Part shown: piece after piece, positions 24,358-27,754 of the stretch | Numbering within the stretch: the first letter of the stretch is position 1 | Layout of the letters: every line of letters begins with the position of its first letter | Origin: Elusimicrobiaceae bacterium | Lineage (GTDB): Bacteria; Elusimicrobiota; Elusimicrobia; Elusimicrobiales; Elusimicrobiaceae | NCBI GenBank assembly: GCA_017468055.1 | Contig: JAFUJU010000089.1 | Coordinates: 1-40,246 of the forward strand | Reading direction: 5' to 3' | Length of the DNA: 40,246 nucleotides | Notes under the pieces: model-generated | Told to the model about the DNA's origin: nothing | What the model saw: the letters and a program-made list of their open reading frames with translations, nothing else | The model's database searches: none | Translations under genes and position numbers: made by a program

Positions 24358-25224
24358 ATGATTTTAGAAGGAAAAACTTTTGCCGCCCAATTACGTGCAC
24401 CCTTAGCCCAAAGAGCCGAACAAATAAAAGCGAAATTAGGAAGACCCATTTCCTTATGCGCCATCGGCTCCACCGAGGACTATGGGGCCTATGTCTATTT
24501 AAAGAAAGAAGTACAGGCAGCGGAAAAATTAGGGGTGAAAGCACAGGTACATGAAGTTAACAAAAATACCTCTGTCCAAGAATTTCTATCCCTGTTAAAG
24601 CAGGCTTCTGCCGATCCGGAGATAGATGCTATTTTGATACCGCGCCCTTTACCGGAACATTTGGCTGATAGCGGGTTTACCCGCTTTATCGCTCCCGAAA
24701 AAGATATTGACGGTATGTCTAATATATCCTTGGGAAATTTGTTCTTATGTAAAACGTGGCAAGAAGTTAAAAAGTTACCCACTTTCATTCCCTGTACGGC
24801 CATGGCAGTTATACGTTTGCTGGATTATCATCACATTGATCCGCAAGGAATGGAAACGGCCGTTATCGGGCGTTCTTCCACGGTAGGCCGGCCTTTAGCC
24901 CATTTGTTAAGCTGCCGTAATGCAACCGTTAAAACTTGCCATACATTCACAAAAGATTTAAAAATTTCATTACAAAATGCCCAACTGATTTGCAGTGCGG
25001 CCGGAAAAGCGGGTTTATTAAACACTCAAAACACACCCGCTGGCAGTATTATTATAGACATTGCTACCAATTTGGATACCCACGGAAATTTATGCGGAGA
25101 TGCCCAAATGCAACCTTTACTGGAACAAGGGTGCCGTGTATCCCCCGTTCCGGGAGGGGTGGGGCCGGTAACACTTGCATGTCTGCTGGAAAACATTATA
25201 TTATCAGGAGAGAAGAAAATCTAA
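24358..25224 (+). CDS. folD: FolD-like methylenetetrahydrofolate dehydrogenase/cyclohydrolase, altered active site
   Basis: FolD interconverts 5,10-methylene-, methenyl- and 10-formyl-tetrahydrofolate. The 288-residue protein has the Rossmann motif AVIGRSSTVGRPLAHLL, the KDIDG loop and a PVPGGVGPVT ending, so the fold is secure. The catalytic set is unusual. With a constant 3-residue offset from E. coli FolD, Tyr50 maps to Tyr47 and Asp121 to Asp118, but Lys54 maps to Glu51 and Gln98 to Pro95 (IPRPLP instead of VQLPLP). The usual PCTP is PCTA. Loss of the lysine should hit cyclohydrolase activity; dehydrogenase may persist. It may be co-transcribed with the lipoprotein gene 9 nt downstream. 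Confidence 0.9.
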   Translation: MILEGKTFAAQLRAPLAQRAEQIKAKLGRPISLCAIGSTEDYGAYVYLKKEVQAAEKLGVKAQVHEVNKNTSVQEFLSLLKQASADPEIDAILIPRPLPEHLADSGFTRFIAPEKDIDGMSNISLGNLFLCKTWQEVKKLPTFIPCTAMAVIRLLDYHHIDPQGMETAVIGRSSTVGRPLAHLLSCRNATVKTCHTFTKDLKISLQNAQLICSAAGKAGLLNTQNTPAGSIIIDIATNLDTHGNLCGDAQMQPLLEQGCRVSPVPGGVGPVTLACLLENIILSGEKKI

Positions 25225-26576: not shown

Positions 26577-27038
26577 CTATTTGATTTCAGAAGTACATTG
26601 CGGGCAGCGGGTAGCTTCTAGAGCAATTTCGCTGCAGCAGTACGGGCATTTTTTGGTAGTTACCGGAGCGGGGGCCTCTTGCTTGGGAGCATTTAATTTA
26701 TTAATCATTTTAATCAAAAAGAAAATACAAGCCGCTACAATCAAAAAGCTAATGATGGAATTTAAACAATTACCAATGTTTAGCGTCGTTGCACCGGCCG
26801 CTTGGGCAGCAGACAAAGAGGCATAGGGCCCCTCGGTAGCACCTTGTTTCAGCACAATAAACCAATTGGAAAAATCTACTTTTCCTAGCAAAAGCCCCAA
26901 AGGAGGCATCAGAATATCTGCCACCATGGAATTGACAATCTTCGTGAAAGCGCCACCAATAATGATACCAACGGCCATATCAATTACGTTGCCGCGCATC
27001 ACAAACTTCTTAAACTCACCTAACACATGTTTAATCAT
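26577..27038 (-). CDS. mscL: Large-conductance mechanosensitive channel MscL with C-terminal zinc ribbon
   Basis: MscL opens under membrane tension to release solutes during osmotic downshock. The 153 residues start at ATG 27038 (AAAGGAGA upstream; overlap of 4 nt with the preceding gene). EFKKFVMRGNVIDMAVGIIIGGAF (8-31) is the classic N-terminus and TM1, and SIISFLIVAACIFFLIK is TM2. The periplasmic loop is normal. After a Pro/Ala linker the tail has CPYC (131-134) and CPQC (145-148), a four-cysteine zinc-ribbon signature that E. coli MscL lacks. A longer reading from 27167 is an artefact of the overlap. Confidence 0.96.
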   Translation of the reverse strand: MIKHVLGEFKKFVMRGNVIDMAVGIIIGGAFTKIVNSMVADILMPPLGLLLGKVDFSNWFIVLKQGATEGPYASLSAAQAAGATTLNIGNCLNSIISFLIVAACIFFLIKMINKLNAPKQEAPAPVTTKKCPYCCSEIALEATRCPQCTSEIK

Positions 27039-27754
27039 TTTTTTCTCCTTTTTATTAGTCCGACCGCTTGAAATAACGGTGCGTACAAATCTTGTTCCGG
27101 CGGGTATGTTATTTCCGACGGGTCTGTTTTTCCAACAAATCTGACAGGGGCCCCCTCTATCCGGCACAGGGGTCTGCGCTCGGCCCGCTCCCCCATTTCA
27201 ACGGCAGCAGCTGCTGCCAAAGCATCTGCTAAATTCACTTGGGTTACTTTCAGGGGTTTGCCAAACAAATCTTTTTTTTCACGCTCATCGCGTACTCCCT
27301 TAAAACCGGCATACCCGCACGCGGCCCCTATTACGCCGCAACGCAAAGGCAAAATCATACTGTCTGTAATAATAATGCCCAGTTTTTTAAGGCCGTATTT
27401 GCTGCAAAGAGCTTTTCTGATTTCTGCCGCACAAGCATATAAATCTTTCGGCAAAAGCAATAGCTTTCCCCGCGCATTAGATTCGTCTATACCGGCATTT
27501 GTCATCACCATACCGGATTTAATACTCAACCAAGCCAATTTTGTTTTTAAACAAGCATCACTTTCTTGGCGTATTAAATTTTCTTTTTGTTTTCCCGATA
27601 GGTAATCAACAGACAAACCCTTCCACAAACAAACTAACTTGGAAGAAATAACCAACAAATCTTTTTCTTTTAAAGGCTCCACATAGCGGCCAATAAAAGA
27701 AATAAGATCTTCTCTTTCCTTAAAAATTCCGGTACGATAAGAAGTTGTTTTCAT
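27035..27754 (-). CDS. CofE-like gamma-glutamate ligase
   Basis: The 239-residue protein belongs to the coenzyme F420-0:L-glutamate ligase superfamily. LLVISSKLVCLWKG, the IITDSMILPLRCGVIGAACG stretch and DLFGKPLKVTQVNLADALAAAAA match the CofE core, including the nucleotide/metal-binding I-S/T-D-S segment. No F420 genes are seen here, and bacterial members outside F420 producers are often annotated as putative folate gamma-glutamate ligases. The true substrate is unknown. It overlaps hemW upstream and mscL downstream by 4 nt each. Confidence 0.8.
   Translation of the reverse strand: MKTTSYRTGIFKEREDLISFIGRYVEPLKEKDLLVISSKLVCLWKGLSVDYLSGKQKENLIRQESDACLKTKLAWLSIKSGMVMTNAGIDESNARGKLLLLPKDLYACAAEIRKALCSKYGLKKLGIIITDSMILPLRCGVIGAACGYAGFKGVRDEREKKDLFGKPLKVTQVNLADALAAAAAVEMGERAERRPLCRIEGAPVRFVGKTDPSEITYPPEQDLYAPLFQAVGLIKRRKK

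What the first reader, a model, noticed from the sequence alone, without database searches (positions are those of the whole stretch)
24358..25224. FolD homologue lacking the catalytic Lys and Gln
Seen directly: aligned with a constant 3-residue offset to E. coli FolD, Tyr50 and Asp121 are kept (Tyr47, Asp118) but Lys54 becomes Glu51 and Gln98 becomes Pro95; PCTP also becomes PCTA. Established: the lysine and the glutamine/aspartate pair act in cyclohydrolysis, and homologues lacking the lysine can be dehydrogenase-only. Inference: this enzyme may have lost cyclohydrolase activity, so the organism would need another route between methylene- and formyl-tetrahydrofolate, or the protein has a new role.
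Basis: partly seen in the sequence, partly recalled or inferred. Interest (0 to 1): 0.6.

Follow-up and report, generated by a model that had tools for sequence, protein, structure and literature searches.

The report
Dehydrogenase-only FolD with separate cyclohydrolase partner
In this gut bacterium the normally two-in-one folate enzyme FolD has lost the residues for its second reaction; a separate small enzyme encoded elsewhere in the genome is in place to do that job, and the two features go together across the whole phylum, so this is a clear variant of a known division of labour rather than a new kind of enzyme.

Summary
The 288-aa FolD at 24358-25224 (+), the only FolD found in a 1.32-Mb Elusimicrobiaceae genome (86.6% complete), has Tyr47 and Asp118 but Glu51 for Lys54 and Pro95 for Gln98. 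All 51 genomes of its family whose FolD was read keep this type (Glu54 with Pro or Ala98; one partial sequence lacks position 54), and the gene is under purifying selection. Published E. coli K54N has no detectable cyclohydrolase but keeps about 19% dehydrogenase activity, so dehydrogenase-only is the best reading. Across Elusimicrobiota 106 of 110 genomes without a K-Q-D FolD carry FTCD_C, against 4 of 75 with one (family-level Fisher p = 3.5e-4). Unrelated Lys-less FolDs of Bacillota, Synergistota and Atopobiaceae mostly have FTCD_C immediately upstream (one is fused to it). In the window's genus, histidine ammonia-lyase, PurH, Fhs and 5-formyl-THF cyclo-ligase were not found. FolD/FchA division of labour is known from clostridia; the E-P-D site, phylum-wide coupling and FTCD kept without HutH look new. 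No enzyme was assayed.

The parts
24358..25224 (+). folD homologue, 288 aa, predicted monofunctional methylene-THF dehydrogenase; only FolD found in the genome
24496..24498 (+). Tyr47 = E. coli Tyr50 (kept)
24505..24507 (+). Lys50, equivalent to E. coli Ser53; invariant in the genus
24508..24510 (+). Glu51 in place of catalytic Lys54; invariant in family f1 where covered
24640..24642 (+). Pro95 in place of Gln98 (Pro or Ala in family f1)
24709..24711 (+). Asp118 = E. coli Asp121 (kept)
24790..24801 (+). PCTA in place of PCTP; PCTA is also common in the sister family and in clostridial Lys-less FolDs, so not specific to this protein

Best explanation
A FolD-family methylenetetrahydrofolate dehydrogenase that has lost methenyl-THF cyclohydrolase activity. 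Shown: it keeps the FolD fold, the substrate-binding Tyr and Asp, the glycine-rich GRSSTVGRP nucleotide-binding loop and the PVPGGVGPVT loop, but replaces both cyclohydrolase residues (Lys54 to Glu, Gln98 to Pro). Inferred: it interconverts methylene- and methenyl-THF with a nicotinamide cofactor, and the separate FTCD_C (FchA-like) protein on another contig of the same genome hydrolyses methenyl-THF to 10-formyl-THF. In this genus formyl-THF is apparently needed only for Met-tRNA formylation, because an Fmt-like protein is the only Formyl_trans_N protein found in the own genome and PurH and Fhs were not found. The companion standalone FTCD_N probably disposes of 5-formyl-THF, since 5-formyl-THF cyclo-ligase was not found in any of 41 genomes and histidine ammonia-lyase in none of the 25 genomes of the genus searched.
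For: Residues and invariance. Published K54N: no cyclohydrolase, dehydrogenase retained (PMC5688156); human K56E, the same substitution, is reported to raise KM more than sixfold with a near-normal dehydrogenase isotope ratio (PMC9173628). Standalone FTCD_C in G000, best solved match an entry named methenyltetrahydrofolate cyclohydrolase, 7vg4, E 5e-16. Co-occurrence 106/110 against 4/75 genomes, family-level Fisher p = 3.5e-4. FTCD_C directly upstream of (16) or fused to (1) 17 of 19 Lys-less FolDs outside Elusimicrobiota, and near folD in 16 non-canonical loci of deep-branching Elusimicrobiota, mostly adjacent. Not found in G000: second FolD, Fhs, PurH, HutH, 5-FCL. One Formyl_trans_N match, a 322-aa Fmt-like ORF. 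Purifying selection. Confident FolD model.
Against: No activity is shown for either protein. FTCD_C also includes cyclodeaminases, which sequence does not separate from cyclohydrolases here, and a standalone FTCD_N partner is present. folD and FTCD_C are on different contigs in G000, so there is no operon evidence in this genome. Four genomes without a canonical FolD lack a detected FTCD_C; all are draft assemblies, and in G181 the folD match begins 7 bases from a contig end. Genome G000 is 86.6% complete, so absences are provisional, though Fhs, PurH, HutH and 5-FCL were also not found in the other genomes of the genus that were searched.
Confidence: 0.8

Rival explanations
1. FolD has lost cyclohydrolase, but FTCD_C is not its replacement: methenyl-THF hydrolyses spontaneously, fast enough for the small need of Met-tRNA formylation, and FTCD_N/FTCD_C remain as a formiminotransferase-cyclodeaminase pair fed by imported or otherwise made formiminoglutamate.
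For: Spontaneous hydrolysis is the explanation given for survival of E. coli K54 mutants (PMC5688156). FTCD_N and FTCD_C are both kept in the genus. An Fmt-like protein is the only formyl-THF consumer seen in the own genome.
Against: No HutH in any of 25 genomes of the genus searched. Lys-less FolDs outside the phylum have FTCD_C directly upstream, and deep Elusimicrobiota without a K-Q-D FolD carry a standalone FTCD_C. The E. coli K54N strain grows very slowly.
Confidence: 0.12
2. The enzyme is still bifunctional: invariant Lys50, one residue before Glu51, or the Lys50-Glu51-Arg96 set, supplies the missing chemistry in a rearranged site.
For: Lys50, Glu51 and Arg96 are invariant in the 15-member genus alignment.
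Against: Lys50 takes the place of E. coli Ser53 on a continuous helix (42-57), about 100 degrees away from the Lys54 face by standard helix geometry. Gln98 is lost as well. The family always carries FTCD_C.
Confidence: 0.06
3. The protein has left folate metabolism and has a new role.
For: Substitution of two conserved catalytic residues.
Against: It is the only FolD found in the genome, folate-binding Tyr and Asp and the nucleotide-binding loop are kept, and selection is purifying.
Confidence: 0.02

Closest known systems
Bifunctional FolD (E. coli 1b0a; MTHFD1/2 dehydrogenase-cyclohydrolase)
   Same: Same fold and both Pfam domains over the full length; Y50 and D121 kept; about 32% identity, Z 33.9 to 1b0a
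   Different: K54 replaced by Glu and Q98 by Pro, the residues tied to cyclohydrolysis; PCTP reads PCTA
Clostridial-type Lys-less FolD with FchA upstream (here Dorea, other Lachnospiraceae, Oscillospiraceae, Synergistaceae, Atopobiaceae; the studied case is Clostridium perfringens FolD/FchA, Aluri et al. 2016, seen only as a citation)
   Same: Lys54 and Gln98 both lost, D121 kept, a separate FTCD_C protein, xRPLP and PCTA motifs
   Different: Ala/Ile54 and Phe/Leu98 there, Glu54 and Pro98 here; folD and FTCD_C adjacent there, unlinked here; separate clades in the FolD tree
FchA methenyl-THF cyclohydrolase (solved 7vg4/7vg5) / FTCD_C cyclodeaminase domain
   Same: The genus FTCD_C protein matches it, E 5e-16, with the PTPGGG motif
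   Different: It is a separate gene outside the window; activity untested; cyclodeaminase not excluded
Yeast Mtd1 (1edz), monofunctional NAD-dependent methylene-THF dehydrogenase
   Same: Dehydrogenase-only member of the same fold; Z 28.3, 22% identity
   Different: Distant; eukaryotic; its active-site residues were not compared here

Membership tests
FolD (THF dehydrogenase/cyclohydrolase) fold family | Both Pfam domains PF00763 and PF02882 above the curated cut-off | tested here: met
FolD (THF dehydrogenase/cyclohydrolase) fold family | Fold matches solved FolD over the full length | tested here: met
   Z 37.1, 280 residues aligned with 3p2o
Bifunctional FolD | Catalytic Lys54 and Gln98 present | tested here: not met
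   Glu51 and Pro95
Bifunctional FolD | Score above an NCBIfam FolD equivalog cut-off | tested here: not met
   best shown 212.7 bits against cut-off 423, 25 of 30 matches shown; these are narrow lineage models, so this says little about function
Bifunctional FolD | Cyclohydrolase activity | not testable with these tools
   needs an assay
Monofunctional FolD / FchA pair | FolD without the cyclohydrolase Lys but with the folate-binding Tyr and Asp | tested here: met
Monofunctional FolD / FchA pair | Separate FchA-family protein in the same genome | tested here: met
   G000:C19:18709-19236, 191 aa
Monofunctional FolD / FchA pair | fchA adjacent to folD | tested here: not met
   different contigs in G000; no FTCD_C beside folD in the 59 loci L086-L144
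Monofunctional FolD / FchA pair | Dehydrogenase activity without cyclohydrolase activity | not testable with these tools
   needs an assay
Histidine-degradation FTCD (for the partner proteins) | Histidine ammonia-lyase in the genome | tested here: not met
   0 of 25 genomes of the genus, 16 of 16 in the sister family

The most novel reading that the evidence does not exclude
Across Elusimicrobiota the cyclohydrolase site of FolD has decayed in several residue patterns (E-P-D, K-E-D, K-E-E, Q-Q/N-E) almost only where an FTCD_C domain is present, and the gut family has kept split halves of a histidine-degradation enzyme as general folate enzymes after losing histidine ammonia-lyase: FTCD_C as the main cyclohydrolase and FTCD_N as the 5-formyl-THF disposal enzyme. 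If so, the K54/Q98/D121 triad would predict from sequence whether a bacterium depends on FchA.
Probability: 0.5. Interest if true: 0.5.

Novelty: new variant of a known kind. Interest (0 to 1): 0.38.

Why it matters
FolD is widely annotated as bifunctional by homology; the NCBIfam matches shown for this protein carry such names. The residue state plus FTCD_C presence gives a simple test that would correct pathway reconstructions. A Lys54-less FolD is also expected to be insensitive to carolacton, since the residual dehydrogenase activity of E. coli K54N is (PMC5688156).

Tried and rejected
The alternative register with Tyr45/Lys49 as the YxxxK motif was rejected because both positions vary. 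Second FolD and Fhs in G000: none found. HutH, PurH and 5-FCL: none found in the genus genomes searched, so histidine degradation and purine synthesis do not explain the folate genes. The window neighbours (CysS, IspDF, a lipoprotein-like ORF, GDPD, MscL, F420-ligase-like, HemN-like radical SAM) give no folate context. Model coordinates were not present in the Python box, so no side-chain distances were measured. A phmmer search with the divergent f7 paralogue found no solved relative. A paper search on Elusimicrobium minutum with genome, folate and purine returned nothing.

Full report
Observation. The ORF at 24358-25224 (+) encodes an intact 288-aa FolD. The only serious alternative alignment, Tyr45-x-x-x-Lys49 as the YxxxK motif, fails because position 45 (Y/H/R) and position 49 (K/N/Q/T/D) vary while Y47, K50 and E51 are invariant in the genus alignment. 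In 58 further loci of the family read over this stretch all are Y-K-E-(51 P, 7 A)-D at positions 50, 53, 54, 98 and 121. The AlphaFold model is confident (mean pLDDT 95.9, pTM 0.92), with residues 42-57 in one helix, and aligns over its full length with solved FolDs. dN/dS against relatives is 0.07-0.10 where dS is not saturated, so the gene is maintained.

Organism. The nearest loci in named public genomes are Elusimicrobiaceae metagenome-assembled genomes from animal guts (up to 84% identity), one named Candidatus Avelusimicrobium excrementipullorum at 76%. The genome is 1.32 Mb in 89 contigs, 86.6% complete.

What the substitutions should do. In E. coli, K54N has no detectable cyclohydrolase and about 19% of dehydrogenase activity; Q98H keeps about 8% dehydrogenase and about 1% cyclohydrolase (PMC5688156). 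For the human enzyme a modelling paper reads earlier kinetic data as showing that K56E, the same substitution as here, raises KM more than sixfold but leaves the isotope ratio near normal (PMC9173628). Loss of cyclohydrolase with retained dehydrogenase is therefore the best inference. It has not been measured on this protein.

The missing route. Only one FolD was found and no Fhs in any of the 37 genomes of this genus searched, whereas 14 genomes of the sister family f2 have it. But a standalone FTCD_C protein, the FchA/cyclodeaminase family, is in G000 (contig C19, 191 aa, PF04961 E 1.7e-40), and FTCD_C is in all 37 genomes of the genus searched. Its best solved match is an entry named methenyltetrahydrofolate cyclohydrolase, 7vg4 (E 5e-16), ahead of the FTCD cyclodeaminase 1tt9, and it keeps the PTPGGG motif.

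Phylum-wide test. I read the four residues in FolDs of 185 Elusimicrobiota genomes and compared them with FTCD_C presence. Of 110 genomes without a Y-K-Q-D FolD, 106 have FTCD_C; of 75 with one, 4 do. The genome-level p value (7e-41) ignores kinship; by family, 10 of 11 non-canonical families against 1 of 11 canonical families have FTCD_C, Fisher p = 3.5e-4 (for this count f2 was scored as non-canonical by its shared copy and f12 as canonical by its canonical copy). The four exceptions among non-canonical genomes are draft assemblies; in G181 the folD match starts 7 bases from a contig end. The one canonical family with FTCD_C, f5, has ORFs of about 510 aa there, long enough for a fused FTCD. 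The non-canonical states fall in separate groups of the FolD tree: f1 and f2 as sister clades within a larger clade with f7/f8, and the Q54/E121 group apart.

Independent lineages. The scan with the family alignment also returned 19 FolDs outside the phylum (Lachnospiraceae, Oscillospiraceae, Synergistaceae, Atopobiaceae and others) with Ala or Ile at 54 and Phe or Leu at 98. Sixteen of the 19 have an FTCD_C ORF directly upstream and one (L148) is a FolD-FTCD_C fusion. This is the known clostridial arrangement; the study of C. perfringens FolD, FchA and Fhs (Aluri et al. 2016) is not in the library and was seen only as a citation.

Folate network. In the genus, PurH was not found, histidine ammonia-lyase in none of 25 genomes, and 5-formyl-THF cyclo-ligase in none of 41 genomes of the order. 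At most one Formyl_trans_N match per genus genome was found, in G000 a 322-aa Fmt-like ORF. FTCD_N is present as a separate protein, 332 aa in G000, while in f2 the two FTCD domains lie on shared ORFs of about 500 aa. FTCD_N-type formiminotransferases (COG3643) can replace 5-formyl-THF cyclo-ligase (PMC3223725). The simplest picture is that the gut family kept both halves of FTCD as folate enzymes after losing HutH. This last step is inference, and cyclodeaminase activity fed by imported formiminoglutamate is not excluded.

Verdict. It is a new variant of a known kind (dehydrogenase-only FolD plus FchA), notable for the Glu/Pro site, the absence of linkage, the retained FTCD without HutH, and the phylum-wide coupling. 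The open points are enzymatic activity, the role of invariant Lys50, and cyclohydrolase against cyclodeaminase for FTCD_C.

Noticed in passing
L148:2962-4488 (+): An uncultured Eubacterium from rumen encodes a FolD (Lys54 replaced by Ala) fused in one ORF to an FTCD_C domain, a natural dehydrogenase-cyclohydrolase fusion of the FolD/FchA type.
   Followed up: partly
L236, L239, L241, L242, L244, L245, L248, L250, L074: A deep-branching FolD-like paralogue with I/M/V at 54, F/L/M at 98 and Glu at 121 in family f7 and one f2 genome; no solved relative by phmmer with L236. In G182 it is the only FolD found.
   Followed up: partly
Elusimicrobiota families f11, f13, f15, f17, f18, f19 (L216, L217, L255-L271): FolD with Gln for Lys54 and Glu for Asp121, usually close to a standalone FTCD_C gene; a second residue solution worth assaying.
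   Followed up: partly
L225:1571-2569 (-), genome G000 contig C70: Standalone FTCD_N (332 aa) next to a KsgA/RsmA-like gene, in a genus where neither HutH nor 5-formyl-THF cyclo-ligase was found.
   Followed up: partly
window:22072-23220 (-): IspD and IspF (YgbB) domains fused in one 382-aa ORF.
   Followed up: no
window:26577-27754 (-): The listed MscL ORF, with a GTG start, overlaps the F420-ligase-like ORF at 27035-27754; the true MscL start is probably an internal ATG.
   Followed up: no
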